Shown here one piece after another: positions 1,461-62,635 of a DNA stretch of 64,000 bases. Source of the DNA: Ceratodon purpureus. Lineage: Eukaryota > Streptophyta > Bryopsida > Pseudoditrichales > Ditrichaceae. Both the position numbers and the translations under genes were made by a program. How positions within the stretch are numbered: the stretch's first letter is position 1; the number at the start of each line of letters is the position of its first letter. The stretch spans positions 18,695,357 through 18,759,356 of the forward strand of contig CM026424.1 of NCBI GenBank assembly GCA_014871385.1, written 5' to 3'. The notes under the pieces were generated by a model. That model saw only the letters and a list, made by a program, of their open reading frames with translations. It made no database searches and had not been told where the DNA came from.

Positions 1461-1912
1461 CTAAGGTAAAGAAACCAAAAACCATAAATGCCCTCAAGGA
1501 ATGCTATAGAGTTTTCCAAAAACAGAGAAGTGGCACACTGAAAATTGAGAAATTTGTATGGTTTTGGTGAACCAGCTAGTTTTTAGTGGACCATTTAAAT
1601 TTTGCCACATAACGTCAAGTTTTGATTTTTTTAATAGTCTTAGTCTAGTTTTCCGTGATACTCCTATTAGTTAACGGTTTTAAAACACCACCACATTTGA
1701 TTGAGGAAGAGTCTAGTATACAAGAAAGGGGTTAGACAAACTTCCTACTTTCAAAAATTCTAGACAATTATTTACATGGAATAAAAATACAAAACAAGTT
1801 GCATTCTTCATCATTTCTTCTTCTTCATCTCAAAAAAATTCAGAGAAATTCTATCTCCCTCCTTTCTAGTCAAATCACCTTATTTTTACGGTTTTTGGTA
1901 ACTCTACCTTAG
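1461..1912. mobile_element. Non-autonomous TIR element (MITE-like), 452 bp
   Basis: The left end (from 1461) reads CTAAGGTAAAGAAACC and continues CAAAAACCATAAA. The right end (to 1912), read on the minus strand, is CTAAGGTAGAGTTACC followed by CAAAAACCGTAAA. The ends therefore form imperfect inverted repeats of about 28 bp with a few mismatches. The interior has no transposase. The terminal CTA/TAG allows a TA target duplication, as for Tc1/mariner-type MITEs, but the exact boundary is ambiguous. A related left end lies near 4280 and a different element with the same first bases lies at 17646. Confidence 0.6.
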
Positions 1913-3162: not shown

Positions 3163-3378
3163 GCTTGTCATATAAAGAAGTTAGATTAGTCTACCAATAT
3201 ATCAAACTTGAATCCAATAGAAAATGTTTGGAAGATTCTAAATTTTTTGTCAAAACATCATAGTAGACCTAAAAACAAGGTAGAAATGATACAAACTATT
3301 CAATATGTATGGGATACAATATCTACAAAGTGGCTTCATACATTAGTTTCGACAAATAAATATGGTACTTACAACTAG
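3163..3378 (+). pseudogene. Tc1-like (Tc1/mariner) transposase C-terminal fragment
   Basis: Translation from 3163 gives ACHIKKLD, a TAG stop at 3187, then SNLNPIENVWKIL and later RPKNK...IQYVWDTIS before a TAG at 3376. In Tc1-like DD34E transposases the last part of the catalytic core reads SPDLNPIENLW, the glutamate being the third catalytic residue, and is followed by a conserved RPKN...W..I segment, so the match is specific. The piece before it resembles the CH.A motif but is shortened and interrupted by an in-frame stop. The N-terminal paired-like DNA-binding domain and the first aspartates are not visible. This is a dead fragment about 70 codons long. Tc1-like elements are uncommon in flowering plants. 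Confidence 0.8.
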
Positions 3379-30660: not shown

Positions 30661-30831
30661 CAAAGCCCCGAGAATTCTCGGAGGTTTCTCTCCGCAAGCT
30701 CCGACAATTTCCATCGCTGCTCGCATTCCATCGCTCCGATGCGTCATTTTTGACGCTTCTTCTCGTACACAACCTGGAGGAACAGCCTCTGCGGAAATCA
30801 GAAGGAGAATTGGAGGAGAGAGGGGGAAGTT

Positions 30832-43226: not shown

Positions 43227-46200
43227 TTATTCGACGTATTGAATGTCCATTGCGTCTTCAAATTGGGTATCGTCGAGGTGACGCTCATCGTCTGCCTCTT
43301 CTTCGTGAAGAACATAAGCCTGGAATTGTTCGGCTGCTACTAATTCAGGTACTTCCTCTGTTTGACTGGGTGCTTGCGAGCTGGTTGCTCGTGATTGCGA
43401 ACGGGTGCTCAGCGTAGGCCGGGTTGATCCTGCAGCACCAAAAACATAGTGCTCTTGATCACCCTGGATCCTCTTGCTTCGGGCGTCATGACGCAACACT
43501 ACCCTCCATGCGGGATCCAGCGAGTCTTCTAGAAAAAAAACTTGTGAAACCGTTGCAGGATATACAAATGGATTGTCTTTGTCACGGATTTCTCTTGAGG
43601 AGTAGTGCACGGTCCAGAAGCCATATGAATCCTTTTTAATCACACGCCGTCCTTGATCGACGGACCTTATCCACGAACCTTCCATCACTACGCAGTTGAG
43701 GTCAAGGTACTGGACCAATAAAATGCTCTTTAAGATCCCCACATCGATCTCTGTGCAGGATTGTGAAGGAGGGATTGTTGCTATCCCACAATCAAACGCA
43801 ACAGTAGTGGGAACTATTTCGCTGTTACAAGTGTAATGGCAGCCGTATGCCCACATGGAATTAAAACTCCAAGCATTAGGTGAAGGTGGGCAATGGAGGG
43901 AGTCCAGTTCACTTGAAACGGGAAATCCTTCTTCTTTGAGGTCACGTACGTGGTCATTGAGCCATTTCGCAAAACATGGGAAGGGAGTTGATAAATCAGG
44001 GGGATAGAGGACTGGAACTCCCGCAACTCTGTTCAAACTTCTGGCAAATTCGACCCTCCTTTGCTTGAAGTCGGCTTTTTGAATAGTCCATTCCCTGCAT
44101 ATGGTCAATCAAAGACGAGATCATTAATTTGATGTACACTCAATGTCATCAGCATAATTCGAAACCTTAATTGCGAAATATCGGAATTCCCCCAGGTAAT
44201 TGGCATGACACAGTTCACGAAAGTCAAATAAACGAAGTCAGCTCAAGCAATTGGATAACAATAGCTACATTAACTGTTACTTATCATCAACATATCAGTG
44301 GGGGTGACTGAGCAACTAGCTATCTTTGCTAGTGAAACAGGAAAAAAATAAAAAAATTGACATGTGCCTCTAAAATAACCGCAATGGCCTCTGTACATGT
44401 TATCTCCCACGACTGTGTGATTTAAGAGTCCATGTAATCCCAACGAGCTCTATAAGTGCACTACCAATGATATCAGAATTTAGTTCCGCAGACGGGAAAC
44501 AAAAAAAGTTAAGTCGCTACTGACGGAGGATTATTCACAGTCCTGAATACTGGAATTGGATTTAAGGGACCCTGATCTCGCAAACAGTTAGTGTACCTGT
44601 GAAATCGGAGCTCAAACGACACGCTAAGGTTAGTCTAAGCAGACTACACATAGAGAACAAATTATAATATACATTGTGGAAGACCAACAGCAGGTTACTT
44701 GACGGGTCTAAGGTTAGGGAAATTACCCCAAGAGCTCCTCTGTGTGTACCGAGTGCTTAAGTACATAGTCATGAATGAAGTCGATTTCCTTCTCTGTCAG
44801 TCGCTTCAGTTTAGGCTTCCCCAGAAGGCACTCTCCGGAATCCTTTAACTCTTCTTCGGGGTCCCAGACTCTGCTTCGACTATGTTCATACAACTCAAAA
44901 TATTCCGTACAGAATCCCAAACTCTCATCAATCATATATCCGGTTGCCATTCCAGCTTCAGGTTTGGACTTATCACGGACATATTTTGTAAGGACACCAA
45001 GATACCGTTCAATAGAGTAGCACCATCTTGCGTGAACGGGTCCACACATCTCTAATTCGTCTACCAAGTGTATTACAAGATGTGTCATAATGTCAAAAAA
45101 TCCTGGAGGGAAATTAATCTCAATAAGGCACAAAACTTCAGCAGCAAGGGTTCTGAGGGCCTCAATCTCAGAAGTTCGAATTACTTTAGCACAAATCCTT
45201 TGAAAAAGATTTCCTAACCTTATTATTGTCTCACGAACACTCCGGGTGAGGAAATTCCGAATGGCTGCTGGCAGAATTTGCTGAAGTAGGACATGGTGAT
45301 CATGGCTCTTGAGTCCGTTCAGACGGCGTTCTCCAATGTGTTTTGTCAGTGTACTACTAAACCCAGAAGGAACCTTGGTTGAAGACACCAGCTGAAGGAA
45401 CCCTCGTTTTTCCCTTTCACTGAACACATACGGTGCCTTCGGCTTCACATAGTTTCCTCCACGAGTTTGCACCAGATGGAGATCGTGCATCACCCCAGCC
45501 CTCTCCATATCCCTGCGAGTTTCCAACGTATCCTTGTCGCCGAATAAATGCTTAAGTATGTTGTCACTGACGTTTCGCTCTATGTGCATTACATCTAATG
45601 TGTTTCTAATAGGGAGTTCCTGCATTCACCATGTAACAAATCCGGCTGTTATAGACCAATTAACCACACCGTGGAACTTTTGCAAACTTTCACGGCACAA
45701 TGTCCGATCGGAATTTTCCGGGCAGGATGGCGACAATGCATCACATTACAAACATAAGCGCCGACCGGTTCGTGAACCTCGTCTCACCTAAGGTCACACA
45801 ACTGTGCTATGGAAGATGTAGACTTGACAACCTAAAGTATTTCAGTCATTTACATGTGAAAAAGTTTGACTGTAAAATTCGGTTTGCAGAAAGAATTGAT
45901 CATGGGATATTTGCTCGAGTAACCAGAAGCACGCATGGTACAGGCCCCTATTGACTATGTAAGTGGCCTTCAATTAGCGTTTAAACTATGGCCGGTCACA
46001 TTTATAGAGCAGGGAACATGTTCGAAAGAGGATGGTATTCGCAGACACTGAATGTAAGACAAGAACGACATGAATCCAATAACATTGAGCAACGAATATG
46101 AATTCTATGCGGACACAAATTGAAGTCGACTCCACTCGCTGGGACGAAATAGGAACAGAACAGAACAGATGGTCATTGCAAGTATTGACAAAAACGCACC

Positions 46201-48146
46201 TTCCAGTAAGGCAATGAAAAGAGCGCCGAGATTCTCTTAATGCCGAATAGGCGTGCGGGATCTGATGACGCTGGAGTCGCCCCCAGTGAAATCCAGCTTT
46301 GTCGGAGTTCGCCCCACCTTAGCACATCCGCAGCTGTGGACTTCACAGGTGGGGGTCTCCTCTCGGCAATTCCACCAAATTCTTGCCTAGGTAGTCTCCA
46401 GTGATGATCACATGGGAGAAAACGCCTATGTTGATTATCATACACGTTTTTATGAAGAGATAAGGAACGACGTGAGATAGTGTTCTCACCAGAGATGGGG
46501 CAGCCATGGTATCCCTTGGTAACACATCCCGCAACAATACCATAAGCCGGAAAATCGTGCATAGTCCATAAGAGGATTGCCTTCATGGTGAACCTTGAAC
46601 TCCCTTGATACATTGAAGCATCATCAGTAGGAACTCCTTGATGCCACAAAATCTGCAACTCTTCTAACAGTGGCTGCAAATAAACATCAAAGTTTTCCCC
46701 CGTGACCGATTTCTTCCCTGGAATTATGAGACTTAACATTATGAAATGTTTTTTAGTAGTCATCCAGGGTGGAAGATTATAGTTCAAGATCAACACTGGC
46801 CACGTACTCCATGTTGACCTGTTGATAGAGAAAGGATTCACTCCATCCGTCGCTAACCCCAACCTCAAATTTCGATCCTCTGATGCAAATTCAGCGTTCC
46901 ATCTCCAATTGACAAATTTCCACTGATGGGAATCTACAGCTCCCCTCATGACTCCATCTTCACTTCTATGACGAGCATGCCAAGTCATGTACGATGCTTG
47001 AACCGGTGTACTATACATCCTTTGCAACCGCGGAATTAACGGGAAATGCCTCAAAACCTTCAATGGCACCTTTGATTTCCCAACCTGTTTGTATCTAGGA
47101 GCCTCACACCGTGGACAATGTGTCATGTTCTTGTACTCCTCACCTCGGAAAAGAATGCATGTCGATGGTCCCGAGCAGCAGTGAATTGTTTCATAGGCTA
47201 GTCCCAATTGTTTTAAGACCTTGGAAGCATGGTACTCATTCGGTGGTAATGAATTTACAGAAGGCAACATGCTTTTGCTTAAAATTGAGAATACCTCATT
47301 CACAAGCTGATTTGATGCTCCATGCGTACGCAGACAGTTGAGGAGAATCAGTGTGCCTCCTAATTGCGTCAAACTCGACCCTGCGAACAAGGGCGTCTTC
47401 GCACTCTCTTCCAGCATCTGCTGCCGTGATGGAGGTAAATTTTCCATCGCTGCGAGATCATCATCTGTCAAATCATCATCGACCGAATATGGTTCTTCAG
47501 GCGGTTCGGGATCTATGGCGCCCTGTTCCATCTCCATAGCCTCATCAGCGGTCTGATCGCCTACCGCTTCAGCTGCGTTGCCATCATCAGCTGTCCCATC
47601 GTCATCCATGTCGCGAACGTTACCCAGCTGGGCAACCAGTCCATCATACATGTGCAATGTGTGATGGACCAATCCTGACATATCCATACCCGAATCAAGA
47701 GTGCCCTGCCGGTTTCGCTCCAGTACTCTATCCCGGGCTCCGAATTCTAATGAGATGTCGTGGTCCCATTCGATATCTGAATCATCTTCCTCAAAACCCT
47801 AATAACAATGCAGTCACTACGTAATCAGGTGCTGCCCATTCGATACGCATCCTTGTCACCAATAATTAAATTTCCATAATGAGGACGCAGCATTGAAAGT
47901 AGGAGATTATCACATTACCTGGGTTGAACCCCGATGACAAGGATGTCGCCCGTAGGTCCCGAGATGCTGGCGCACTATCGCCCTATATTGCAACGATCTG
48001 TTCTCTCCAAGGCAAACATTACACGGACACACCCGCCTCGCAGCGCTTGTTCTGTCCGCCAATAACTCCTCCCTGAACAAAAGTTTCCTATTGCGTGCTT
48101 CCTGTCTCCTTCTATCCTGCAGTGGTAACCTTCCCTCTTCCTCCAT
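43227..48146 (-). CDS. CACTA (En/Spm) transposase, TNP2 type
   Basis: Four exons with consistent phases and GT-AG introns (48146-47919, 47798-46200, 45619-44727, 44094-43227) give 1,195 codons with no internal stop. Order of parts: an N-terminal zinc-binding motif CPCNVC with H61; an acidic linker; the TNP2/transposase_21 core (LGLATDGVNPFS, YLQPLLEELQILWHQGV, MHDFPAYGIVAGCVTKG, LPYWK|ELPIRNTLDVMHIERN across an intron); DUF4218 (THLVIHLVDELEMCGPVHAR, SIERYLGVLTKYVRDKSKPE); DUF4216 (KKDSYGFWTVHY, VFFLEDSLDPAWRVV); and an acidic tail. In this family the protein cuts at CACTA-bearing terminal repeats. The intact frame suggests recent or present activity. I could not locate the CACTA/TAGTG ends, so the element borders remain open. 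The accessory gene and a nested TIR element lie downstream on the same strand. Confidence 0.93.
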
Positions 48147-49800
48147 CGCTCAGAACTCTACTACACCGCACCCTTGCAACGTCCATGCAGTGAAAAACTT
48201 GGAACAGCCACGAACACTGATGATGTACGAAGCAGACCAACGACAGCAGAAATCATCATCCCCTCTAACGACAACAGTGTCCTATGGATGATAAACTCAC
48301 AGATGGATGTTTCAGGAATTGGATTGTATCGTGTGCATGCAAAAACGAGGCAAATTTTATTTATCTGAAAAAGATACAGAGTCAATGCAGAGTTTGCATG
48401 TACAATCCTAGCAGCGCCAGAAGGTCACCACAATCTAGCTGAACAGCAGTCCCTGAGGCACTCTTATCAACGCCTGCAGCACTTCACGACAGGATCCTGT
48501 CTCAATTAGTTCCGGCGGTCGTTGTACACTCCTTCGTTGTAATGAAGATTGAACAAAATCCGCAACAACTCATAAAATCTTGGTTTTCATATGTCGTCAC
48601 CAAAAACCAACAGGTGTATCATCAGCGTAGAGACGGACAATTCGAAGCATCGTTGGAGCCAAGCAAAATGCCTGTCGAGGATTCCAGTGCCGTATGCTGA
48701 ATCTTCAACTTCGCAGTATTGACAATCTGGACTACACTTCAGCATTGAGCATAGGCCCATGTACCAAACTCGTGTCTCTCCATCCTCCGTCTCCAATGCC
48801 GGCATGTCAGAAATAAAATCAGTTTCCTGGTCGAATCTCATTGCCGGTTTCACGTCTGATTCTACCAGCCACACATCAGAGACGCTTGGGAGACTCTCGG
48901 ACGTCACTAAAGTGCGAGCCTTGAGCGGTGAGCGGAGAGCGGTGAGCGGTAACTTTGCGGATATTTTGATGTATTTGGGAATTTAGAGCGATATGGTTAT
49001 GGTATTTTATGGATTAACAATTTTTTGGGTTTTGAAATTTCTAAATTTAGTTCGTAATGGGACCTATTACCGTGGACAGTCTCAGCAAAATTAATACTTG
49101 GCCTGATCTATGGCCGTGGAAATTATTGTATTACGGTTTTCGGGTGCGTTAGTGGCCTCCACTCGTGGATTCCTGTTATAGAGACTGGTCAGCCGGGTCT
49201 TTTTATAAGGACAGGCCGTGAGGTAACACTGTAGCGCTGAATTTCTCTTCAGTGTGTCGTGAGCCACGGAGGTAGGGGATGAACGTCAGCCAACAGCCAC
49301 TGCCGATGATTCCAACCCAAGCAAGCGTCGAAAACTGGAGGACAATGAATTCTCACTTTGCGCACGAACAAAAAGATTAGACCATACATGTGCAACATAT
49401 CATACAAAAGTATGCACGTTCTGCAAAGTACAACAGAACAAGTGGTAGTTTATCCCATTCATGGACCTATGACAAAGGTGGGTCAGTAGTACACCTCCCC
49501 TTCAGTAAGAGTTCTCTCGGTTTAGGGAGTCTGGAAAAGGATTGTTCGGGCCTAGGCACACATATGTGACTTCCTCCCAGACCCTTTTACATGGACCTCT
49601 TCAGGAATTACACAGTTCTTTAAATGACTTGCAAAATGGTTCTTAACAGCGCTTAAGAAAAATAAGGGCGTGATTCACAAGAATGGGAACAACGGTTTAC
49701 AGTGCAAGTGCAAATTTGTGGTAGTGGCCCTTTTAGTCTCACTACTTCGTCATTGAGATGAATTCAGGCGATACATGTGTGAATAACGAATCAGATATCA
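48147..49800. other. Region between the CACTA and Mutator-like transposase genes
   Basis: It contains the probable promoter of the CACTA transposase, a hypothetical 106-codon frame (listed separately), a short GAGCGGT/GAGCGGA direct-repeat cluster at 48918-48952 that could be subterminal transposon repeats, and the 3' flank of the Mutator-like gene. Neither element's end could be fixed. Confidence 0.4.
48587..48907 (-). CDS. Hypothetical ORF, 106 aa
   Basis: The frame starts MTSESLPSVSDVWLVESDV and has a cysteine cluster CSPDCQYCEVED. Its acidic, mixed composition looks protein-like rather than repeat-driven, and it lies on the same strand 440 bp upstream of the CACTA transposase start. It could be a separate small transposon gene or a mis-delimited 5' exon. 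No family recognised. Confidence 0.3.
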   Translation of the reverse strand: MTSESLPSVSDVWLVESDVKPAMRFDQETDFISDMPALETEDGETRVWYMGLCSMLKCSPDCQYCEVEDSAYGTGILDRHFAWLQRCFELSVSTLMIHLLVFGDDI

Positions 49801-52800
49801 CTACTTCTCCAGGTGCTTCAAAAGGCCACTCTCTAGGACTCGCTTGACTTCGTTGAAGCTAAAACTAGCTGCATGAATGAATGTATCCGACTCCGAATCA
49901 AGACCGCAAACTACACTGAGAAGGTAGTACAAATGCTTACAATTAGCCCATTGACCCCGCTTCCCAAGTGCCGTCATTGCCATCTCCTTGAAGTTTGGGC
50001 AAGTGCAGGCAGGGTGCTGCGAAATGGTCAGGTAGTATTGTTGTACCTTTGGAAGCTTCCCAGAATCCAATGTGACAATGCATCCCAGGGCTGGGGCAGG
50101 CAGCATGCAAAGCTTGCTGACCTTCGCGTTCAACGATAAGGCAGAGGCACAATTATTGCTATGCTTGGTCGACGGGGCCTTCTTGTTCCGTCGGATGAGC
50201 TTCCCTGATCGCCGGGTAGGGAACTCATCCGGGTATGCCGGCGTAGGGTAGGCGGAGAGGTCCACTGCCGCGGCCCGGTCTTGGAAGAGTCTTCTTGGTG
50301 ACATCTCCTTCAGTTGAGGGAGTCTGAAGCCGGCATTCTCTAGAGAGAGGATCTCTTTCTTCGTCAACTTCGTCCCAATCTTCACAGGCCACACCTCAGG
50401 TACCTTTGGCACCGATAGTACCCACTTCCGCTTGCTACCCTTGACGCACCTGTCAATGTCGTCATTGCAGAAAAAGAACTGATGAGTCTCTATTCTGTCC
50501 TTCTGGTAGTTCTTCATGGGGCCTGTGTATGTCGGCGCAGCCGTGCTCTTCCCGTGCTGCACAATTCGTGCCACGCATTTCTTCTTAGTCACAGCGTGTT
50601 GGGCGAAGCAAGCCTTAGCGGACGTCTTAGGAAGTCGTGCAATGTGCCACTCGGAAGGGTTGCAGGCGGTCTCTTCAACTGAAGTGACGTGATGGTACTC
50701 GACTGGAGGTGGACAGTGCTCAGGGTGGAGGTCGGCTTCGTCCGCTTCAGTGCTTGTAGGAGAGTCTGCTATTACCACCGTCGGAGGGTAGTCGCTCTCC
50801 AGACGTGCAGCTCTAGTCTGGACACGAGGTCTTGACACGATGATCTTGTCTGGCCTATGAGACTCTCGTTCATCTCCGAAGGCAACATCAGGTTTTCGTT
50901 TTAGTGAGACACAGACCTCCTCCCCTTCGAGATGCGGGTCCCTTGTGCACCAGTCGCCCGCTCCTGGCATGTTCATAATTGCTTCATGTAGGACCTTCGG
51001 GTTCCCTGTCCTCGCTGCAGATCTCTGTGCACGTCGGAGGCTGAGCTCTTCTTTTGACGGACCTTTCCCGGGACGCTCCCCCTTCAAGAACTGGAAGTAG
51101 GCAACGCATTGCATGAACGCCCTTACAAAGTCGTCGACAGCTGCAACGTACAAGTCGCTGCCCCGATCTCCAGACTGCTGCTTCCACCTGTTGTGAATTG
51201 ATTCAGCAAGATTGCACGACGGCATTTCCGCCAGCTCTTCCTCAGTGTGATTCTGCGCACATTAGGGGTTAGGTTAGGGTTTAGGGTCCAATTACTGACT
51301 GCGAAGCAAAAACAGTGCCACCAGCAAGAGTCCTCGTCACCGAGGCCAATTGCCAAGCGCTGCAAGGCTGCTGCATTGGGCGCTAACTCAAGGCATGGAG
51401 CAACATGAAAGACCAGACTGAGTACCCCCAGCAAGAGTCCTCGGCACCGAGGCAAATTGCCAAGGGCTGCAAGGCTGCTGCATTGGGCGCTTAGTCAAGG
51501 CATGGAGCATCATGAAAGACCAGACTCAGTACCCCCAGCAAGAGTCCTCGGCACCGAGGCAAATTGCCAAGGGCTGCAAGGCTGCTGCATTGGGCGCTTA
51601 GTCAAGGCATGGAGCATCATGAAAGACCAGACTCAGTACCCCCAGCAAGAGTCCTCGGCACCGAGGCAAATTGCCAAGGGCTGCAAGGCTGCTGCATTTG
51701 GCGCTTAGTCAAGGCATGGAGCATCATGAAAGAGCAGACTCAGTACCCCCAGCAAGAGTCCTCGGCACCGAGGCCAATAGCCAAGGGCTGCAAGGCTGCT
51801 GGATTCGGCGGTAGGTCATGCCTCGGAGGATCAGAAATGAGCAGATTCTGTACTCCCACCTGGAGTACTCGGCACCGAGGGCTGAAAGGGTGCTGCACTG
51901 GACGCTAGGGCATCGCAAGGAGCATCACGAGAGAGCAGATTCTTTACCTTCACCAAGTTACCTAAGATGCGATAGACACCTGAAAGGCCGAGAGATAGCT
52001 TACCAGTTCCATGAAGCCTCCCCACTGCCGATAGCGATGGTGCCAGAACGAGAGCCACGTCTCCATGTTGGAGAGCCCTTTTCCAGTTGCAGCGCCGGAT
52101 GACATCCACCATGCTCGGATTGCCAAGAATTTTGTTTCAGCTTCGGCCAGTGTCGTCGCATTCTTGTACTGTTGGCAGAGTTTGATATGTTGTGCTCGGA
52201 GGTCCTGTCGAATGTTTGCGTTTGTATGTTGCTCCAAAGACTGCCTCCAATGAAATAGGCATGTCCTCTCCCTGTCAACCATCCTCTCGGAGGCGTTACC
52301 GCTCCCATAGATAATTCGAACTGCGTTCCAATTCGCTTGGGCACCGTCTGCCATGAAGCCCTTAAAGTTAACTCTCGCGACCCCGTGAGTCTCCATGATG
52401 GCATTCAAATTCTTCCACAGCACGGACTGGGCTGCCGTGTCCTCCGACTGCATGTCGCACGCAGCGATTGTCATTATCCGACAGTAAGTTGGGTCGTAGA
52501 CGTGGCAGGCCATCGTTACCCAGTCCCTTACTCGCCTCACGTGGTCAAACATGATCCACGCATCCTCCAAGTCACCGCCTGTCTGCATACGCTTAACTAG
52601 ATCGACTCCAGAACCCGGCCCTACCTCAGACATCTTGAAGACATACACCTTCGCCGCATCATCGCCTTGCCCCGGGAACATGTTATTCTGGATAAACTTC
52701 CAGTTGCTGAACCCCCGCAGCATCCTGATGCCATCCATAGTCCCAAAGCGCCTAACATTCTTGAACGACGTAATGCAATTTCGGATGTTTGGAGAAGAGA

Positions 52801-54118
52801 GGTGCTTACAGCGGTCGAATATTGGTTCGAGCTCCTCCAATTCAAGAATCTTCTGCGGTTCACCTTCCTTGGCCAGAAGTAACGGGCCCAGCAGCTCCTT
52901 CGCAGTTTCGAGGACGATTGCGGAGGGTGTGGCGGAGGGAGTGCGCTCCACCTGCTCCCTGATCAAATTCTCCGTGTGTTCGACGAAGTCACGGTTCTCG
53001 CCAGACTTCACTGGATGATTGTGAGTTCCGAAGTGAACGCACGCTCTCGTCATGTGAGGTCCTGCAGTGACATAGTAAATCTTTGCAGGACAAAGTGCAA
53101 CGCAGGTAGGCGGCGTACTGCAAGATTTACAGACCACGGTGGAACTCTGCGGCGGCTTCGACCCAACTTCAAACAATTTCTCAGATTTCCCATCCCATTC
53201 AGTCTCGTTCAGTACCGAAGTCCTATTATCACGTGTAAGATACTCACATTTGACATTGTCACAGCGCAGATGGCCAAGGCACGACGAAGAACGAAATGTC
53301 AGCTTGAGGTCGTTCTGAATATTCGAAGTCGCTGTTCGAGTCCAAGGGTGTCCGTCGTATTTCCTATCCATTCCCCGTAACTGCTTTGCGCCGGAGTGAT
53401 GGCCGTGAGCACCTAGGGGTGGGAACTCAAAAATGACATCGCCATTGTACTGAGGAGGAAGGTACTCAACTTCCTGCATTCTAATTGCATCAAAATTGAT
53501 GCGAGACAGAACACTCTTTGACCTTTTACGAGCGCTAAGCTTCATGAGGCACTGGACGACACTGTTTGAAGGGGAGACTGCCGGGATAGACGGAGGGGAG
53601 ACTGCAGGGGTACATGGAACGGATGACTTCAGGGAGGTTACTACTATTGCAGGAATCTCAACTGCAGTTGGCAATGTCGTGTCCTTCACCTCAGGGAGTA
53701 CTGTCGTCTCAAGTACGTTTTCACTATCAGAATCACACAACTCAAAGATGGTTTGAAGTCCTGGCTCGGTCTTCACTTTCCTCAACGGCGGATCAGAATT
53801 GATGCAAACTGTTGTGGACGATCGGGGGGTAAGCAATTCAGTAGAAGCACCTAAGACAGACTCCGTAATTCCGTAGACTCTGTACTTCCCTGGTTTAAGC
53901 AACCAAAACGTCCCAAACTCCTTCTGGGTAGATAACTGACCCACTGCATGCGAAAGTTCGCCACTGATGTCGTCAAATATCTCCTCCTCTACATGAAGTG
54001 ATTCCTCTCTGTACTGGAAGCGAAGACTCAGAGTGGTAGAACTGATCATAGCACACCCATCTACACCCAAAGGAAACGTAATCGGAACAGAATGCGAATC
54101 TGCACGAAGGTAAGCCAT
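49801..54118 (-). CDS. Mutator-like (MULE) transposase with WRKY-GCM1-type and SWIM zinc fingers
   Basis: Exon 1 (54118 or 54154 to 52004) and exon 2 (51252-49801) join in phase 0 across a 751-bp GT-AG intron, giving 1,188 or 1,200 residues without a stop; the ATG at 54118 has the better context. Numbering from the longer start, residues about 285-380 hold CLGHLRCDNVKC, CKSCSTPPTC and HFGTHNHPV, the pattern of WRKY-GCM1 zinc fingers found in some Mutator-type transposases. The DDE region has WIMFDHVRRVRDW, FMADGAQANWNAVR, the CLFHW (C2H) motif and METWLSFWHHRYRQW. MPSCNLAESIHNRWK in exon 2 matches the conserved T.N.AES.N segment. A SWIM finger, ACTCPNF...CKHLYYLL (CxC, CxH), is near residue 1140. 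The family excises and inserts its element as a nuclear recombinase. The intron is filled with a tandem repeat. TIRs were not identified. Confidence 0.82.
51310..51955 (-). repeat. 107-bp tandem repeat, six copies, in the MULE transposase intron
   Basis: The motif CCTCGGCACCGAGG or its variants recurs at 51332, 51439, 51546, 51653, 51760 and 51867, an exact period of 107 bp. The central copies are almost identical; the outer ones are diverged. Read on the minus strand, each unit runs CAGCCCTTGGCA...GCCTCGGTGCCGAGGACT...TGCTGGGGG...CTGGTCTTT.ATGATG, which aligns along its whole length with the 108-bp satellite at 56.8-61.1 kb. Confidence 0.93.
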
Positions 54119-54515
54119 ACTGTGAACACGAAGAGCGAGATGTGAAAAAAGCAAACACGGCGGAGGAGATGATCACAGAATATTACGTACCCTCCTCGCT
54201 GCGACATTCTTCTAAACTCACACAAGAGTACATGATTCAGGAGACGGTTAACATTAAGACGTATAGTTAGGATAATTTCTGGAGCGAATAACCTTATATG
54301 AACTAATTAATCATGGATTAGTACAGGTCCAGAGAACATGCCCGCCCTAATATTCATTGTCATATAGGCTGGGAGATTACAGACATGAGTGGAAGATGAC
54401 GGCCACTTTTAGTACTAATAGATTTTTTATTACAATGAAACGATTTCATTACAGCAGAACCATTCCGATCACATTCAGGTACACGTACTCCAAGGTCTTT
54501 AATCCCACTACTCTG

Positions 54516-54971
54516 TTAAACTCGACGAATGTGTTTTCTGGATGGCTCCCTCGCATCGTACTCTTTGATACTGTCTTCAAGAAGCCCATGAGTGCTAATT
54601 GCAGTCCAGCAGCCTCTACTTTGGAGCTTACGTCCTTTCGGACGAGGGGTGCTTCTTAAAAGACATCTGGAGTAGGTCCCCGGTTTGATGTTTCCAACTT
54701 TGGCGTACGCATGGGCTGCACTAATAACGTCGCACACAGCCCCTTCTCCTTCTACCGTGGTTGCTGTGGCCGATTGGACACAGCCCTCGGCGTCCACAAT
54801 CATGACATGAACGGAAGCAACTTGGGTGGGTGGCTCCTTGGAGTCTGGCAAGCTGCAATCTGGAACTGGATCAAAGGGACCCTGAAAATCGTCTAAGGAC
54901 ACCTCATACTCTCCCACTACCTGTGAATCTAGAAGTATACGAGAAGGGGACATGAGCGGTTCTGCCTCCAT
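54516..54971 (-). CDS. Hypothetical 151-aa protein resembling the MULE transposase N-terminus
   Basis: A single frame from ATG 54971 to the stop at 54516, on the same strand as the transposase and about 360 bp upstream of it. The middle, VDAEGCVQSATATTV then VCDVISAAHAYA and IKPGTYSR, can be aligned with the transposase N-terminus (VDGCAMISSTTLSL, DDISGELSHAVG, LKPGKYRV), so both seem to carry one small domain. The rest is acidic at the N-terminus and basic at the C-terminus. No known family is recognised. It may be an accessory protein of the Mutator-like element that shares a dimerisation or targeting domain with the transposase. The similarity was judged by eye and is modest. Confidence 0.5.
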   Translation of the reverse strand: MEAEPLMSPSRILLDSQVVGEYEVSLDDFQGPFDPVPDCSLPDSKEPPTQVASVHVMIVDAEGCVQSATATTVEGEGAVCDVISAAHAYAKVGNIKPGTYSRCLLRSTPRPKGRKLQSRGCWTAISTHGLLEDSIKEYDAREPSRKHIRRV

Positions 54972-55494
54972 CTCCAGTGAAGCCTCTACTAAGATTATCT
55001 CAGTGTGGAAATGCGTCTGGAAATGGAGGAGCCAGTGACATTTCTTATATAGGAGTACAATGAACGCAGCCTCGGCTCATGTTAAAACACGTGTCTAGGA
55101 GGGCTATATTAATGCAAAGAATGAATCAGGGACGGCGCAGTCTTCGCATGGTTGTTTACATGCAGTTAATACGTGACAGTATGAAAGGTGAACTAACTTG
55201 TGCTGCAGAACAAATGCTACGTCCTGGTGAGTAGATATTGGAATATTATCAGGTAACTAATTTCATGTATTCCACGTACAGCCAACGGCGGCTCATTCAT
55301 TAAGACAACTATTAGCGTGCAAATATCTTATGGAGGGCCCAAATGTCAGTGAGATCTATAAATCGAGGTCTAGCTCATAATGACACGCTTTAAGACATTT
55401 TAAAGAATCAACATATTATGGGGTTCATAGATCCCTCGTCAGCTATTTTTTCAAGCCATTACGTAATGCTTCGGATGGCCCATTAGAATCAGAG
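54972..55494. promoter_or_regulatory. Intergenic region between divergent genes
   Basis: About 520 bp separate the minus-strand 151-aa gene and the plus-strand modular gene, so a divergent promoter is likely here. I see no precise core promoter element that I would call. Confidence 0.35.
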
Positions 55495-58400
55495 ATGATC
55501 ACACGGTCTGCTTCGAAGGCGCAGGCAGAGTTATCCAGGTCTGTACAGAAACGGAGGCGTCTTCGGAGGAAGAGGAGGTTAGCGGCTCCGGAGGTCACTG
55601 AATCCCCGTACAATTTGCGTTCAGCGATGGGGAAGAAGGGAGGGAATTCTAGTCAGGCCGTCGGAGGACAAACTAGACGGCCTGGCGCTTCGATTGGACG
55701 AGACGATGTTTCACCGCGAACTCTGAAGTATGTGGAAGAGGACGGAACGCCCATCCAGAATCCTCGCAGTAAGGTATGCTCCAATTCAATGGGAACCATG
55801 CATACGCTTGTCAACTTCGTTCTCTGGTAGACAATAAAAATCACTGTCCTCATGAGTATGGGTTACTTCAGAGTTGTCAAGTACATAGTCATCGAGTAGG
55901 CTGTAGTTTAGGAATTCAGGGTTTAGTGCGGGACGTTTCCTGCGGACGAAAAGGCCTATTACTCATGTGATTAAAATGGTGACAGATTGAACGATGTTTG
56001 AGCCGTATGAATTCATTTTTTCCGTTCTCGTCATATTATTTACGTACTGAGAAATTGCAAAGAGCGAATCATTAATAATAGTTCGTTGGCGGTAATATCG
56101 GGGTCGGCACCGACTGAGGCAAAGTCTCGTTGCAATAGCCTAGGGGGCTGGTTCAGACCGCAGCATATACGAGGGACGGGTCTAGGTTAAGAGAGAGGGG
56201 GCGCATGCAGCCTCGCAACGACATCCTACGTAGTATTCTGCGTTCCTTGTGATTTTGGTGTCCCTTCTGTTGGTCTTCTATTCCCCTGCACTGCAGACCT
56301 CATTGAGCATTTAGTTATTACTACAGCTCCTGGAGCAGATCGAAGTCGAGGACGACATGGAGGAAGAATCAGTCGACCGGAGTATGCGAGCACCAGTAAA
56401 GCTGAAGCCCAGCAACCATATTCAGGTGACGACTTCATATGTTATAATGTTCTGCATTATATACGTCTTCCTTTAGCTTGTTGATGCCATCTATTTCGAG
56501 TAATTGGAGCTTCTGGTTAGTACAGCATTAGGTCTCGCGAGGATACCTAATATCCAGGGTTTTCTGAGAGAATACAAATTTCGATGTCGCAGCCTCAAAC
56601 CGGTGCGGGAAGCAGTACCAGCGACAGCGGTGGTCCTTTCATCGCGACCAGAGGAGGCAACGTCATGATCGCAACACCCTCAAACAATCAGGTATGAGCT
56701 AATGCTTGGGCTCCAACTCCGATCAGCTCATGTCGTAATATCACTCCATTCTACAGCCCTTTCAAGCAGCGTCGTAGCCCACGGCATAATGCCTTGGTTT
56801 AGGGTACACCCGCTGCGGCTCCCAGTCTGGTGGTTTTATGTTGATTTGTAAGTTGTATTGTGTGCCCATCTCGCATCCCCGCAGCCCTCGGCATACTGCC
56901 TCGGTGCCCAGGACTTGTGCCGGAGGCTCCAACTGTAGGCTTCTTCTGTTGATTTGTAAGTTGCATTGTGTGCCCCTTGAGCAGCCTCGCAGCCCTTGGC
57001 ATCAAGCCTCGGTGCCGAGGACTTATGCTGGGGGCTCCGATTTTGGTCCTTTTCTGTTCATTTTAAAGTTGCATTGTGTGCCCCTTGAGCAGCCTCGCAG
57101 CCCTTGGCTTCATGCCTCGGTGCCGAGGACTTATGCTTGGGGCTCCAATTTTGGTCTTGTTAAGTTGATTTGTAAGTTGCATTGTGTGCCCCTTGAGCAG
57201 CCTCGCAGCCCTTGGCATCAAGCCTCGGTGCCGAGGACTTATGCTGGGGGCTCCAAGTCTGGTCTTGTTATGTTGATTTGTAAGTTGCATTGTGTGCCCC
57301 CCTAGCAGCCTCGCAGCCCTTGGCATCATGCCTCGGTGCCGAGGACTTATGCAGGGGGCTCCTGCTCTGGTCTTGTTATGTTGATTTGTAAGTTGCATTG
57401 TGTGCCCCCCTAGCAGCCTCGCAGCCCTTGGCATGAAGCCTCGGTGCCGAGGACTTATGCTGGGGGCTCCTGCTCTGGTCTTGTTATGTTGATTTGTAAG
57501 TTGCATTGTGTGCCCCTCTAGCAGCCTCGCAGCCCTTGGCATGAAGCCTCGGTGCCGAGGACTTATGCCGGGGGCTCCAATTTTGGTCCTTTTTTGTTCA
57601 TTTTAAAGTTGCATTCTGTGCCCCTCTAGCAGCCTCGCAGCCCTTGGCATGAAGCCTCGGTGCCGGGGACTTATGCTGGGGGCTCCAATCTTGGTCCTTT
57701 TATGATGTATTATGAGTTGCATTGTGTGCCCCTCTAGCAGCCTCGCAGCCCTTGGCATAATGCCTCGGTGCCGAGGACTCCCGCTGGAGGCTCCCATTTT
57801 GGTCTTGTTATGTTGATTTGTAAGTTGCATTGTGTGCCCCTTGAGCAGCGTCGCAGCCCTTGGAATAATGCCTCGGTGCCGAGGACTTACGCTGTGGGCT
57901 CCTCCTCTGGTCTTTTTATGTGGATCAGTCCTCCATAGGGAACTAAGACTGACCAATATATGTTGTTTCTCTTTTGGAACAGGTGCCACGAAAAGGTGGT
58001 CCAGTAACCATGAGCGGAGGTGAGGATGACGTCGACGCAACACCAAGCAACAATCAGGTACGAACATCGTCTACGCTGGGTTCTGTTCAATAGAGCGTGC
58101 TTAATGAATGTGTTACTCGATTGTACCAGGAGACCATTAAGATACCCTCGCAGCCCTTGGCATAATGCCTCGGTGCCGAGGACCCCCATTAGGGGCTTTC
58201 ACTGTGGTCTTTTTCTGTTAATTTTTAAGTTGCATTCTGTGCCCCTCTAGCAGCCTCGCAGCCCTTGGCATCAAGCCTCGGTGCCGAGGACTTATGCTGG
58301 GGGCTCCAGCTCTGGTCCTTTTATGATGTATTCTGAGTTGCATTGTGTGCCCCTTGAGCAGCCTCGCAGCCCTTGGCATCAAGCCTCGGTGCCGAGGACT

Positions 58401-59326
58401 TATGCTGGGGGCTCCAGCTCTGGTCCTTTTATGATGTATTATGAGTTGCATTGTGTGCCCCTTGAGCAGCCTCGCAGCCCTTGGCTTCATGCCTCGGTGC
58501 CGAGGACTTATGCTGGGGGCTCCAAGTCTGGTCTTGTTATGTTGATTTGTAAGTTGCATTGTGTGCCCCCCTAGCAGCCTCGCAGCCCTTGGCATCATGC
58601 CTCGGTGCCGAGGACTTATGCAGGGGGCTCCTGCTCTGGTCTTGTTATGTTGATTTGTAAGTTGCATTGTGTGCCCCCCTAGCAGCCTCGCAGCCCTTGG
58701 CATGAAGCCTCGGTGCCGAGGACTTATGCTGGGGGCTCCAATCTAGGTCCTCTTATGATGTATTATGAGTTGCATTGTGTGCCCCCCTACCAGCCTCGCA
58801 GCCCTTGGCTTCATGCCTCGGTGCCGAGGACTTATGCTGGGGGCTCCTGCTCTGGTCTTGTTATGTTGATTTGTATGTTGCATTGTGTGCCCCTCTAGCA
58901 GCCTCGCAGCCCTTGGCATGAAGCCTCGGTGCCGAGGACTTATGCTGGGGGCTCCAATCTTGGTCCTTAGGTGATGTATTATGAGTTGCATTGTGTGCCC
59001 CTCTAGCAGCCTCGCAGCCCTTGGCATAATGCCTCGGTGCCGAGGACTCCCGCTGGAGGCTCCCATTTTGGTCTTGTTATGTTGATTTGTAAGTTGCATT
59101 GTGTGCCCCTTGAGCAGCGTCGCAGCCCTTGGAATAATGCCTCGGTACCGAGGACTTACGCTGTGGGCTCCTCCTCTGGTCTTTTTATATTGATCAGTCC
59201 TCCTTAGGGAACTAAGACTGACCAATATATGTTGTTTCGCTTTTGGAACAGGTGCCACGAAAAGGTGGTCCAGTAACCATGAGCGGAGGTGAGGATGACG
59301 TCGACGCAACACCAAGCAACAATCAG
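55495..59326 (+). CDS. Unknown modular gene with repeated phase-0 exons separated by satellite arrays
   Basis: Predicted exons are 55495-55773, 56327-56425, 56593-56691, 57983-58057 and 59252-59326 (93, 33, 33, 25 and 25 codons). All are bounded by AG/GT and all are phase 0 on both sides, so they join in any number. Exon 1 starts MITRSASKAQAELSRSVQKR and has a strong basic signal (KRRRLRRKRRL). Exon 2 is acidic and ends KLKPSNHIQ. Exons 3 to 5 share a theme: GGP...GG...ATPSNNQ. Exons 4 and 5 are identical. Introns 3 and 4 each contain ten 108-bp monomers, and more monomers follow exon 5. I do not recognise the protein, which looks disordered. The end of the gene is not seen; after exons 4 and 5 a nearby acceptor would give the short terminal reading ETIKIPSQPLA and a stop. 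The shared satellite links it to the Mutator-like element. Confidence 0.5.
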
Positions 59327-61086
59327 GTACGAACATCGTCTACGCTGGGTTCTGTTCAATAGAGCGTGCTTAATGAATGTGTTACTCGATTGTACCAGGA
59401 GACCATTAAGATACCCTCGCAGCCCTTGGCATAATGCCTCGGTGCCGAGGACCCCCATTAGGGGCTTTCACTGTGGTCTTTTTCTGTTAATTTTTAAGTT
59501 GCATTCTGTGCCCCTCTAGCAGCCTCGCAGCCCTTGGCATCAAGCCTCGGTGCCGAGGACTTATGCTGGGGGCTCCAGCTCTGGTCCTTTTATGATGTAT
59601 TCTGAGTTGCATTGTGTGCCCCTTGAGCAGCCTCGCAGCCCTTGGCATCAAGCCTCGGTGCCGAGGACTTATGCTGGGGGCTCCAGCTCTGGTCCTTTTA
59701 TGATGTATTATGAGTTGCATTGTGTGCCCCTTGAGCAGCCTCGCAGCCCTTGGCTTCATGCCTCGGTGCCGAGGACTTATGCTGGGGGCTCCTGCTCTGG
59801 TCTTGTTATGTTGATTTGTAAGTTGCATTGAGTGCCCCTCTGGGAGCCTCGCAGCCCTTGGCATAATGCCTCGGTGCCGAGGACTCCCGCTGGGGGCTCC
59901 AATTTTGGTCTTGTTATGTTAATTTGTAAATTGCATTGTGTGCCCCTTGAGCAGCCTCGCAGCCCTTGGCATCAAGCCTCGGTGCCGAGGACTTATGCTG
60001 GGGGCTCCTGCTCTGGTCTTGTTATGTTGATTTGTAAGTTGCATTGTGTGCCCCCCTAGCAGCCTCGCAGCCCTTGGCATCAAGCCTCGGTGCCGAGGAC
60101 ATATACTGGGGGCTCCAATTTTGGTCCATTTATGATGTATTCTAAGTTGCATTGTGTGCCCCCCTAGCAGCCTCGCAGCCCTTCGCTTCATGCCTCGGTG
60201 CCGAGGACTTATGCTGGGGGCTCCAATTTTGGTCCTTTTTTGTTCATTTTAAAGTTGCATACTGTGCCCCTCTAGCAGCCTCGCAGCCCTTGGCATCAAG
60301 CCTCGGTGCCGAGGACTTATGCTGGGGGCTCCAGCTCTGGTCCTTTTATGATGTATTCTGAGTTGCATTGTGTGCCCCCCTAGCAGCCTCGCAGCCCTTG
60401 GCATCATGCCTCGGTGCCGAGGACTTATGCTGGGGGCTCCAGCTCTGGTCCTTTTTTGTTCATTTTAAAGTTGCATACTGTGCCCGTGTAGCAGCCTCGC
60501 AGACCTTGGCATCAAGCCTCGGTGCCGAGGACTTATGCTGGGGGCTCCAGCTCTGGTCCTTTTTTGTTCATTTTAAAGTTGCATACTGTGCCCCTCTAGC
60601 AGCCTCGCAGCCCTTGGCATCAAGCCTCGGTGCCGAGGACTTATGCTGGGGGCTCCAGCTCTGGTCCTTTTATGATGTATTCTGAGTTGCATTGTGTGCC
60701 CCCGTAGCAGCCTCGCAGCCCTTGGCATGAAGCCTTGGTGCCGAGGACTTATGCTGGGGGCTCCAGCTGTGGTCCTTTTTTGTTCATTTTAAAGTTGCAT
60801 ACTGTGCCCCTCTAGCAGCCTCGCAGACCTTGGCATCAAGCCTCGGTGCCGAGGACTTATGCTGGGGGCTCCAGCTCTGGTCCTTTTTTGTTCATTTTAA
60901 AGTTGCATACTATGCCCCTCTAGCAGCCTCGCAGACCTTGGCATCAAGCCTCGGTGCCGAGGACTTATGCTGGGGGCTCCAGCTCTGGTCCTTTTATGAT
61001 GTATTCTGAGTTGCATTGTGTGCCCCCGTAGCAGCCTCGCAGCCCTTGGCATGAAGCCTCGGTGCCGAGGACTTATGCTGGGGGCT
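56790..61086 (+). repeat. 108-bp satellite, 36 monomers, interleaved with exons
   Basis: The core CCTCGGTGCCGAGG (6-bp palindromic arms around TG) was followed through 36 positions from 56899 to 61057. Within each block the spacing is exactly 108 bp, with no indel that I could find, although monomers differ by substitutions. A further degenerate monomer precedes 56899. The array is broken only where exons 4 and 5 sit (57.9-58.14 and 59.17-59.41 kb). A typical unit reads CCTCGCAGCCCTTGGCATCA, GCCTCGGTGCCGAGGACTTA, TGCTGGGGGCTCC, CTGGTC, then AGTTGCATTGTGTGCCCC. Because 108 is a multiple of three, frames stay open across many units on both strands; these are not called as genes. Confidence 0.96.
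57610..59790 (+). repeat. Tandem segmental duplication with 1,269-bp offset
   Basis: Every landmark of the block around exon 4 recurs 1,269 bp later around exon 5: satellite cores 57655/58924, 57763/59032, 57871/59140 and 58168/59437, the exon starts 57983/59252 and the exon ends 58057/59326. Similarity runs from about 57.61 to 58.52 kb and from about 58.88 to 59.79 kb with only a few base differences, so the duplication is recent. Extra monomers (58.5-58.9 kb) lie between the two copies. Confidence 0.9.
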
Positions 61087-61299
61087 CAGGGTTGTCACGG
61101 TCGTCCGGGACGCTTGGGACGTGGGGACGTCCGCGGACGTCCGCCAGCGCCAGGGGACGTCCTGTGATTTAGAAAAAAAAAATCACCCGCATAGGTTTCA
61201 CCACGGGGTGAAACCACATCTTCTACGCGGCGGAGGGGTTGCGGGGGAGGGTGCGGCCGTCGCCGCGGAGCGGGGGGGGGCCGTCGGACGCGTCGGGAA

Positions 61300-61790
61300 G
61301 GGGCCGTCCCCGGCGACGGCCCCTTGCCGTCGCCGCGGAGCGGGGGGCCCTCCCCGGCGACGGCCCCTAGCCGTCGCCGCGGTGGGGGGGGGGCCGTCCC
61401 CGGCGACGGCCCCTTGCCGTCGCCGCGGTGGGGGGGGCCGTCCCCGGCGACGGCCCCTAGCCGTCGCCGCGGTGGGAGAGGGCCGTCCCCGGCGACGGCC
61501 CCTTGCCGTCGCCGCGGTGGGGGGGGCCGTCCCCGGCGACGGCCCCTTGCCGTCGCCGCGCTAGGGGGGGCCGTCCCCGGCGACGGCCCCTTGCCGTCGC
61601 CGCGGTGGGGGGGGGCCGTCCCCGGCGACGGCCCCTTGCCGTCGCCGCGGTGGGGGGGGCCGTCCCCGGCGACGGCCCCTTGCCGTCACCGCGGTGGCGG
61701 GGGGCCGTCCCCGGCGACGGCACCTTGCCGTCGCCGCGGTGGGGGGGCCGTCCCCGGCGACGGCCCCTTGCCGTCGCCGCGGAGACGGCC
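61300..61790. repeat. GC-rich minisatellite, about 44-bp period, 11 copies
   Basis: The segment TCCCCGGCGACGGCCCCT, then TGCCGTCGCCGCGGTGGGGG, repeats with cores at 61308, 61352, 61398, 61442, 61487, 61531, 61575, 61620, 61664, 61709 and 61752, so spacing is 43 to 46 bp, varying with the length of the G run. Each unit holds self-complementary parts and a run of five to ten G on the plus strand. Confidence 0.93.
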
Positions 61791-62635
61791 GCAAATTTTT
61801 TTTAAAAAAATCCCGAATCTTAAAATCTTCATAACTTCTTCAAAACGTCTCCAAATCGGGCTTATGAGGTGTTTTTTGGCATCTACATTTCCTGTAGATG
61901 CCAAAAAACATCTCATAAGTCCAATTTGGACAAGTTTTGAAGAAGTTACCGGAATTTGGAGATTTCGGGGAGTTGAGGGGTCGGCCGTCGGCGGGGACGG
62001 GGGGCCGACCCCCGGGGACGGCCGTGGGGACGGCAGGCCGTCCCCGGCGACGGCCGCGGGGACGGCCGCAAATTTTAAAAAAAAATCCCGAATCTTAAAA
62101 TCTTCATAACTTCTTCAAAACGTATCCAAATCGGGCTTATGAGGTGTTTTTTGGCATCTACATTTCCTGTAGATGCCAAAAAACATCTCATAAGTCCAAT
62201 TTGGACAAGTTTTGAAGAAGTTACGGGAATTTGGAGATTTCGGGGAGTTGAGGGGTCGGCCGTCGGCGGGGACGGGGGGCCGACCCCCGGGGACGGCCGT
62301 GGGGACGGCAGGCCGTCCCCGGCGACGGCCGCGGGGACGGCCGCAAATTTTAAAAAAAAATCCCGAATCTTAAAATCTTCATAACTTCTTCAAAACGTAT
62401 CCAAATCGGGCTTATGAGGTGTTTTTTGGCATCTACATTTCCTGTAGATGCCAAAAAACATCTCATAAGTCCAATTTGGAGAATTTTTGAAGAAGTTACG
62501 GGAATTTGGAGATTTCGGGGAGTTGAGGGGTCGGCCGTCGGCGGGGACGGGGGGCCGACCCCCGGGGACGGCCGTGGGGACGGCCGGCGGTCCCCGGCGA
62601 CGGCCGCGGGGACGGCCCCCCGTCCGCTTGGAGGC
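61791..62635. repeat. Three direct repeats of about 275 bp, each with a long hairpin
   Basis: Units begin at GCAAATTT at 61791, 62068 and 62343. Each contains an inverted repeat with arms of about 57 bp and a TTTCC loop (first copy 61831-61887 and 61893-61949), with the innermost 20 or so pairs (around GGCATCTACA/TGTAGATGCC) nearly perfect, then a GC-rich part with GGGGACGG and CGTCCCC blocks. The copies are almost identical. Confidence 0.93.

What the first reader, a model, noticed from the sequence alone, without database searches (positions are those of the whole stretch)
51310..61086. The same satellite lies in introns of two divergent genes, in the sense direction of each
The 107-bp repeat in the Mutator-like transposase intron and the 108-bp repeat in the plus-strand modular gene align over the whole unit, including the palindromic core. 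The arrays are inverted relative to each other, so each is in the same orientation with respect to its own transcript. A repeat kept sense-oriented inside the introns of both genes of one element suggests a function in splicing, transcript processing or transposition.
Basis: partly seen in the sequence, partly recalled or inferred. Interest (0 to 1): 0.85.

Follow-up and report, generated by a model that had tools for sequence, protein, structure and literature searches.

The report
Moss transposon with intron-borne tag arrays
A jumping gene, probably of a moss, carries blocks of one repeated DNA tag inside the introns of two oppositely directed genes, always pointing the way each gene is read, in an arrangement that resembles the binding-site arrays with which some Arabidopsis jumping genes recognise their own copies and escape silencing.

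Summary
The window lies in a 362-Mb genome that fits the moss Ceratodon purpureus. The element is a Mutator-superfamily transposon: transposase (-), a 151-aa ORF (-) and a long multi-exon plus-strand gene. All 28 transposase copies at 97% identity or more have the array beside them on the same strand; in 11 inspected copies 68 of 68 intron units and 329 of 329 plus-gene-side units keep their strand. Of 40 scored loci matching the intron array, 39 adjoin transposase exon 1. More distant subfamilies (12 introns read) have a ~100-nt intron without satellite, so the transposase-intron array is one derived gain (clade support 0.98). One copy each of four such subfamilies carries other tandem arrays (65, 150, 171 bp) in the plus-gene region; several share a sense-oriented motif, linked only weakly to the 108-bp unit. 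In the satellite a 53-bp core is conserved, the linker mainly in length. No RNA structure was found; splice-like signals tilt only weakly to sense. Best reading: noncoding arrays bound by an element-encoded protein, as in Arabidopsis VANDAL/VANC, with a non-VANC accessory gene. Binding and anti-silencing are inferred, not shown.

The parts
48899..61092 (.). Mutator-like element copy; left end intact (GGACGTCACTAAAG...), right part lost at 61092
   Evidence: window and 10 further copies share this left end with different flanks; complete copy C3b is about 15,658 bp with TIRs and an 11-bp target duplication read by eye
49801..51252 (-). transposase exon 2 (AESIHN motif and CxC...CxH SWIM-like motif read by eye)
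   Evidence: ORF, splice phase 0, conserved in copies
51253..52003 (-). transposase intron, 751 bp; 644/751/858/965 in other copies, i.e. whole 107-bp steps
   Evidence: 27 of 32 database proteins contain the anchor before this site and each has Val (GTN) there (by eye)
51305..51918 (-). 107-bp satellite, 6 units, sense to the transposase
52004..54118 (-). transposase exon 1 (GCM-type zinc domain, RNase H-like domain)
   Evidence: AF2 model pLDDT 70, pTM 0.40; Foldseek best ISCth4 transposase E 6e-4, GCM domain rank 5; 32 database proteins, one identical
54516..54971 (-). ORF3, 151 aa, second minus-strand gene
   Evidence: 3 database protein clusters; same position in A copies and in one copy each of B-G
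55495..55773 (+). plus gene exon 1 (basic)
   Evidence: 4 database protein clusters, one the window's own; same place in A copies and one copy each of B-G
56327..56425 (+). plus gene exon 2
56593..56691 (+). plus gene exon 3
56757..57923 (+). 108-bp satellite array in intron 3, 11 units
57983..58057 (+). plus gene exon 4, 25-aa module
   Evidence: phase 0; 0-4 copies found in the fetched part of A copies
58117..59192 (+). 108-bp satellite array in intron 4, 10 units
59252..59326 (+). second copy of the exon 4 module (units and exon repeat with a 1,269-bp offset)
59386..61092 (+). 108-bp satellite array in the next intron, 16 units, cut at 61092

Best explanation
The arrays are cis-acting protein-binding arrays of a Mutator-like transposon, placed in noncoding DNA of the element (introns of both genes, and in some copies downstream of the plus gene) and read at the DNA level by an element-encoded protein, most likely the product of the plus gene. 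High local density of the core marks the element's own copies, so that the protein can open or de-silence them. Arrays grow and turn over by unequal exchange in whole units. The core is kept by selection and the linker mainly in length. The transposase intron received an array once, in the ancestor of subfamilies A-C. Shown: element membership, strand constancy, a single gain, core conservation, different units in the plus-gene region of other subfamilies. Partly shown: a motif shared by those units. Inferred: protein binding, which protein, and the anti-silencing outcome.
For: Core 46/53 against linker 22/55 identical between the two array types. Seven array classes of A-C share 13 invariant columns in a row, GCCTCGGTGCCGA. 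Arrays in D, E/F and G are 171, 65 and 150 bp. A joint motif near CCCGAGCAGACTCGCA over A, D, E, G has fewer mismatches than any of 1000 shuffles at five lengths. Motif AGCAGMCTYGCAG at up to 2 mismatches is strand-biased: C3b +37/-7 with all 7 in the transposase-intron array, D +37/-0, E +59/-0, F +9/-0, B +50/-1. Gene order TPase-ORF3-plus gene kept in the A copies and in one copy each of B-G. ORF3 and plus gene exon 1 are far more diverged than the transposase (dN 0.41-0.52 against 0.03-0.14). Whole-unit length steps. Plus-gene exon 4 is repeated with the arrays. PMC5735166 (Results read in full) reports VANC21 on motif arrays in introns, intergenic and terminal regions, motifs in one orientation, VANC exon/intron structures often tied to tandem repeats, and a much more conserved VANA.
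Against: No binding, methylation or expression data. The plus-gene product has no VANC domain and no recognised DNA-binding domain. The 108-bp unit is tied to the others weakly: pairwise only A-E stands out (3 of 500 shuffles), not A-D (58), A-F (494), A-G (65); A_TP gives D 167, E 24, F 19, G 102; E-G 24 and F-G 100 are weak too. Control: with A reversed, the joint score ties the sense score at K = 11 and ties or beats the shuffle minimum at every length, and D-E-G alone is already at 0-1 of 1000, so most of the joint signal is D-E-G. E was chosen as reference after inspection. G has 1 match to the main motif form; the second form gave G +26/-3 but B +0/-6. Where measurable dN/dS is 0.08-0.41, and plus gene exons 5-9 have dN 0.15-0.40: divergence, not positive selection.
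Confidence: 0.42

Rival explanations
1. Passenger minisatellite: introns and ends of a large transposon tolerate tandem growth; the array spread from plus gene to transposase intron by chance and is inherited with the element. Same orientation is a coin toss fixed by descent.
For: Subfamilies D-G do without the transposase-intron array; single gain; whole-unit copy-number change; weak sequence link between the 108-bp unit and the D-G units; transposon-borne tandem arrays are reported (search listing only).
Against: Core and linker have the same age but 46/53 against 22/55 identity; 13 invariant columns across seven array classes; tandem arrays are present in the plus-gene region of the one copy read from each of B-G although the unit differs.
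Confidence: 0.31
2. Transcriptional enhancer, insulator or internal transposase-binding array: host factors or the transposase itself bind the palindromic core and drive the two divergent genes or the transposition complex.
For: Imperfect 14-bp dyad CCTCGGTGCCGAGG exact in 32 of the 36 plus units with a recognisable core, and in 4 of 6 minus units; arrays flank the divergent gene starts; transposase has a GCM-type DNA-binding fold.
Against: The transposase-intron array is missing in D-G although the gene order is alike; the A monomer HMM gives only weak matches in the D-G regions (8 in E, best E 0.17, positions of the non-palindromic part mostly; 1 each in D, F, G; shuffled controls 1-4 in total).
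Confidence: 0.17
3. RNA-level function: sense arrays act in splicing, intron retention or transcript processing, or the antisense direction is selected against because it would bring in harmful signals.
For: Sense strand in 68 of 68 and 329 of 329 units. Best donor and best acceptor score higher in sense than antisense in 6 of 8 units each; the E unit has a strong donor (10.7, p 0.01; real donors of the element 5.1-9.5); AATAAA/AATGAA occurs in sense in 0 of 8 units and in antisense in 3 of 8.
Against: No excess RNA structure (z -1.20 and -0.65 sense, -1.79 antisense, E unit +1.63); no Rfam match in the arrays at E <= 1; sense donors beat shuffles in 1 of 8 units and acceptors in none below 0.05 (D at 0.05), with recalled PWMs; the intron is short and free of it in D-G.
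Confidence: 0.1

Closest known systems
VANDAL21/Hi and VANDAL6 elements with VANC anti-silencing proteins (Arabidopsis; PMC5735166 Results read, PMC10398659 abstract and introduction read, PMC6446971 passages read)
   Same: Mutator-like element with transposase plus two further genes; short motifs in tandem repeats in introns, intergenic and terminal noncoding DNA; one orientation per array; repeats and motif differ between related elements; accessory gene with repeated exon/peptide modules, more diverged than the transposase.
   Different: No VANC domain (DUF1985, DUF287) found in the plus gene; different motif; here the repeat also lies in the transposase intron; units of 107-109 bp with a long conserved core; TIRs of about 70 bp, while VANDALs are described as lacking TIRs or having short degenerate ones; function untested.
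Mutator superfamily DNA transposons (MuDR and kin)
   Same: IS256-like transposase fold, GCM-type zinc domain, TIRs, 11-bp target duplication (one copy).
   Different: Three-gene element of about 15.7 kb; transposase not recognised by Pfam; intron inside the catalytic domain (by recalled DDE motifs) filled with a satellite.
Transposon-borne satellite DNA (e.g. in Helentrons or LTR elements; search listing only)
   Same: Tandem arrays dispersed by a transposon.
   Different: Arrays sit in introns of the element's own genes with constant strand and a conserved core.

Membership tests
Mutator superfamily | RNase H-like DDE transposase of the IS256/MuDR type | tested here: met
   AF2 model of exon 1 only; Foldseek best four hits ISCth4 (IS256 family by recall), E 6e-4 to 1.8e-3, prob 0.89-0.99, but low TM (0.20-0.28 on target); no Pfam hit
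Mutator superfamily | WRKY/GCM-type zinc domain before the catalytic domain | tested here: met
   GCM domain 1odh at Foldseek rank 5, E 0.019, prob 0.93: moderate
Mutator superfamily | SWIM zinc finger after the catalytic domain | tested here: inconclusive
   CxC...CxH seen in exon 2 by eye; Pfam gives no match
Mutator superfamily | TIRs and 8-11 bp target duplication | tested here: met
   copy C3b only: TIR match of 66-72 bp starting about 14 bp in, CTCCTGCTCGC on both sides by eye; the three other copies tested gave no TIR within the fetched part
VANDAL/VANC system | VANC protein domains DUF1985 and DUF287 | tested here: not met
   not among Pfam results for plus gene exons 1-4 or the later segments
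VANDAL/VANC system | motif-bearing tandem repeats in noncoding regions of the element, one orientation per array | tested here: met
   for D-G the exon-intron structure was not modelled
VANDAL/VANC system | element protein binds the motif and removes silencing of own copies | not testable with these tools
   needs ChIP/EMSA and methylation data

The most novel reading that the evidence does not exclude
A moss Mutator-like family has independently evolved a self-recognition and anti-silencing system of the VANDAL kind: a non-VANC accessory protein (plus gene, with a conserved DGNHR segment) reads intron-borne arrays whose core co-evolves with it from subfamily to subfamily, and the system has extended its own tag into the intron that splits the transposase catalytic domain.
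Probability: 0.3. Interest if true: 0.82.

Novelty: new variant of a known kind. Interest (0 to 1): 0.62.

Why it matters
I know sequence-specific anti-silencing by transposons only from the VANDAL elements of Arabidopsis. A second case with an unrelated accessory gene in a moss would show that tagging one's own noncoding DNA with repeat arrays is a repeatable way for transposons to escape silencing. The family offers at least seven subfamilies in one genome, with different units and a candidate reader protein, and mosses are haploid and easy to transform (recalled), so co-evolution of tag and reader could be tested directly.

Tried and rejected
Coding satellite: the 108-bp period keeps frame and some frames stay open, but the homologous 107-bp array does not keep frame, so rejected. 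RNA hairpin or ribozyme: no support. Cryptic splice sites: a weak tilt to sense, not convincing. Free genomic satellite that entered two introns by chance: 39 of 40 main rows (window included) lie next to transposase exon 1 on the same strand (31 by position within 700 bp; C3b; 7 by tblastn); one, on C6, showed no exon within 800 bp. The other 17 of its 57 rows were left out as overlapping or adjacent pieces at the same loci. That search scored 40 of 306 candidates and used the transposase-intron array as query, so plus-gene-type arrays elsewhere remain uncounted. ParB/sulfiredoxin-like fold for the DGNHR segment: recalled idea; Pfam (DUF1015 at 0.075-0.12 in 4 of 4), PHROGs (one unnamed family at 0.0098 in 1 of 4) and PDB searches did not support it. 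Exact core patterns in viral and prokaryotic contigs: none; transposase in viral contigs: none. Array translation as protein probe: the 4 hits match exon 1 only.

Full report
Where it is. The window is C4:18695357-18759356 of a 362,488,568-bp genome of 151 contigs; contig C6 has 110,524,308 bp. A review gives Ceratodon purpureus 360 Mb with sex chromosomes above 100 Mb each (PMC8000587, passages seen). The species is my inference, not a record.

The observation. Both repeats are there and are homologous. TRF gives period 107 at 51313-51880 and period 108 within 56817-61087. A monomer HMM finds 6 units on the minus strand and 37 on the plus strand; matches outside the arrays have E 1.5 or worse. 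The consensus units agree in 68 of 108 columns, 46/53 in a core from CAGCCTCGCAG to CTGGGGG and 22/55 in the linker. Their local score of 80 compares with at most 17 in 500 shuffles.

The host genes. On the minus strand lies a two-exon transposase. Pfam does not see it, but an AlphaFold2 model of exon 1 (mean pLDDT 70, pTM 0.40) matches the ISCth4 transposase (E 6e-4) and the DNA-binding GCM domain (E 0.019), which places it in the Mutator superfamily; TM-scores are low. It has 32 database proteins, one identical. In the 27 of 32 that contain the anchor before it, the intron site is kept (by eye). Four of them (P0002, P0008, P0014, P0023) can be read through a short intron of roughly 90-265 nt into exon 2, with no satellite (lengths estimated by hand). 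Next comes a 151-aa ORF with three protein clusters. On the plus strand is a gene with phase-0 exons, whose first exon has relatives at 43-59% identity.

Close copies. An independent test: of the 28 transposase copies at 97% identity or more found with the protein, 28 have a match to the intron array within 700 bp on the same strand. I inspected 10 further copies besides the window; these were picked from the top, that is, because they match the array. All 11 share the left end GGACGTCACTAAAG with different flanks. All carry 5-8 units in the transposase intron, and 10 of 11 carry multi-unit arrays in the plus gene; the eleventh, C1a, breaks off after one unit into a related transposon. Units with score 25 or more: 68 of 68 minus in the transposase intron, 329 of 329 plus on the plus-gene side; lower-scoring matches, and plus-strand units lying left of the element in C8b, were left out. 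Intron lengths in ten copies are 644, 751, 858 or 965, whole 107-bp steps; C2a was not measured because its donor string did not match. Copy C3b is complete: about 15,658 bp, TIRs, and CTCCTGCTCGC on both sides. It shows the rest of the plus gene as open segments of about 206 aa (with a DGNHR motif), 29, 72, 81 and 179 aa, with further arrays between them; exon limits there are estimates.

Subfamilies. Seventeen introns of other transposase copies were read. All 5 at 90-94% identity (4 B, 1 C) hold the satellite, in sense; two of these (L034, L036) were not. All 12 at 86-88% (D, E, F, G) have an intron of about 100 nt without it. Over the whole list, array matches accompany 28 of 28 copies at 97% or more, 3 of 6 at 90-94% and 0 of 27 at 86-88%; C11:4040628 and 15 of the 27 were not read. 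Exon-2 trees group A, B and C with support 0.984 (DNA, 27 sequences) and 0.924 (protein, rooted with P0002); L042 was left out as too short. So the transposase-intron array is best read as a single derived gain. In one copy each of B and C the plus gene also holds the satellite in sense.

The unexpected part. One copy each of D, E, F and G keeps the gene order, and none has the 108-bp satellite at E 0.01 in the 10-kb stretch read, but each has other tandem arrays there: 171 bp in D, 65 bp in E and F, 150 bp in G. They lie between exon 1 and later plus-gene segments; in E one more lies after the 72-aa segment, in G one after the last segment. Exons of D-G were not modelled. Pairwise, D-E, D-F, D-G and E-F stand out (2, 1, 0 and 0 of 500 shuffles), and A-E does (3 of 500); A-D (58), A-F (494), A-G (65), E-G (24) and F-G (100) do not. 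Over A, D, E and G together a motif near CCCGAGCAGACTCGCA has fewer mismatches than any of 1000 shuffles at five lengths. Two cautions from the same call: D-E-G alone already reach 0-1 of 1000, and with A reversed the joint score still ties or beats the shuffle minimum, although it is worse than the sense score at four of five lengths (9 against 13 mismatches at K = 16). The reference E was picked after inspection. The link of A to the others is therefore suggestive only. The motif is sense to the plus gene: D +37/-0, E +59/-0, F +9/-0, B +50/-1, C3b +37/-7 with all seven minus matches in the transposase-intron array; G has one match. A second form gave G +26/-3 but B +0/-6, which does not fit.

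Rates. Between A and D-G, dN is 0.03-0.05 for transposase exon 2, 0.12-0.14 for the part of exon 1 held, 0.41-0.46 for ORF3, 0.44-0.52 for plus gene exon 1 and 0.15-0.40 for its later segments; dS rises too (0.34-0.42, 0.61-0.77, 1.06-1.40, then above 1.3 or saturated). dN/dS, where measurable, is 0.08-0.41, so there is no sign of positive selection. The accessory half is far more diverged, by faster change or by older separation with exchange of the transposase half; I cannot separate these.

Mechanism. In VANDAL21 the VANC21 protein binds a nine-base motif that is dense in introns, intergenic and terminal regions, arrayed in one orientation and often in tandem repeats; repeats and motif change between related elements; VANC exon/intron structures are diverse and often tied to tandem repeats, with tandem peptide motifs, while VANA is much more conserved (PMC5735166, Results read in full). 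Silencing by RdDM hits the same noncoding regions (PMC10398659, abstract and introduction read). Most of these anatomical points have a counterpart here. The plus gene is not a VANC by Pfam, so I claim 'works like', not 'is a'. Binding and effect on silencing are untested.

RNA folding of the units is ordinary (z -1.20, -0.65; antisense -1.79; E unit +1.63). Best donor and acceptor scores are higher in sense in 6 of 8 units each, but sense donors beat shuffles only in E (p 0.01) and acceptors reach 0.05 only in D; AATAAA-like signals occur in 0 of 8 sense and 3 of 8 antisense units. A mild preference for the sense direction for such reasons is not excluded. The family keeps this intron short and array-free in D-G.

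In print. I saw no paper on this element in the rows listed by eight searches. The library lacks most subscription journals, so this is weak evidence of absence.

Noticed in passing
43227-47798 (-): CACTA-type element (recalled class): Transposase_21, DUF4218 and sub-threshold DUF4216 domains, directly left of the Mutator element.
   Followed up: no
61093-62617: GC-rich 44-bp repeats and three 275-bp repeats with long inverted arms replace the right end of the element; hairpins match miRNA families below their gathering scores.
   Followed up: partly
57983-58057, 59252-59326 and other A copies: The 25-aa exon 4 module occurs 0 to 4 times per copy in the fetched part, so the plus-gene protein may vary in repeat number between copies.
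   Followed up: partly
49801-56000 against D-G copies: dS rises stepwise from transposase exon 2 to the plus gene, which suggests exchange between subfamilies or different ages of the two halves.
   Followed up: partly
L029 about 2900-3960; L030 about 1240-1980 (reverse strand): Copies C3a and C4a carry a further sense array downstream of the last plus-gene segment; copy C3b has none there.
   Followed up: no
G000 C6:101788854-101789211; L061: The one array match without a transposase exon within 800 bp lies on the 110-Mb contig, presumably a sex chromosome.
   Followed up: no
30754-31860 (+): Ribosomal L1 domain gene, E 2e-47.
   Followed up: no
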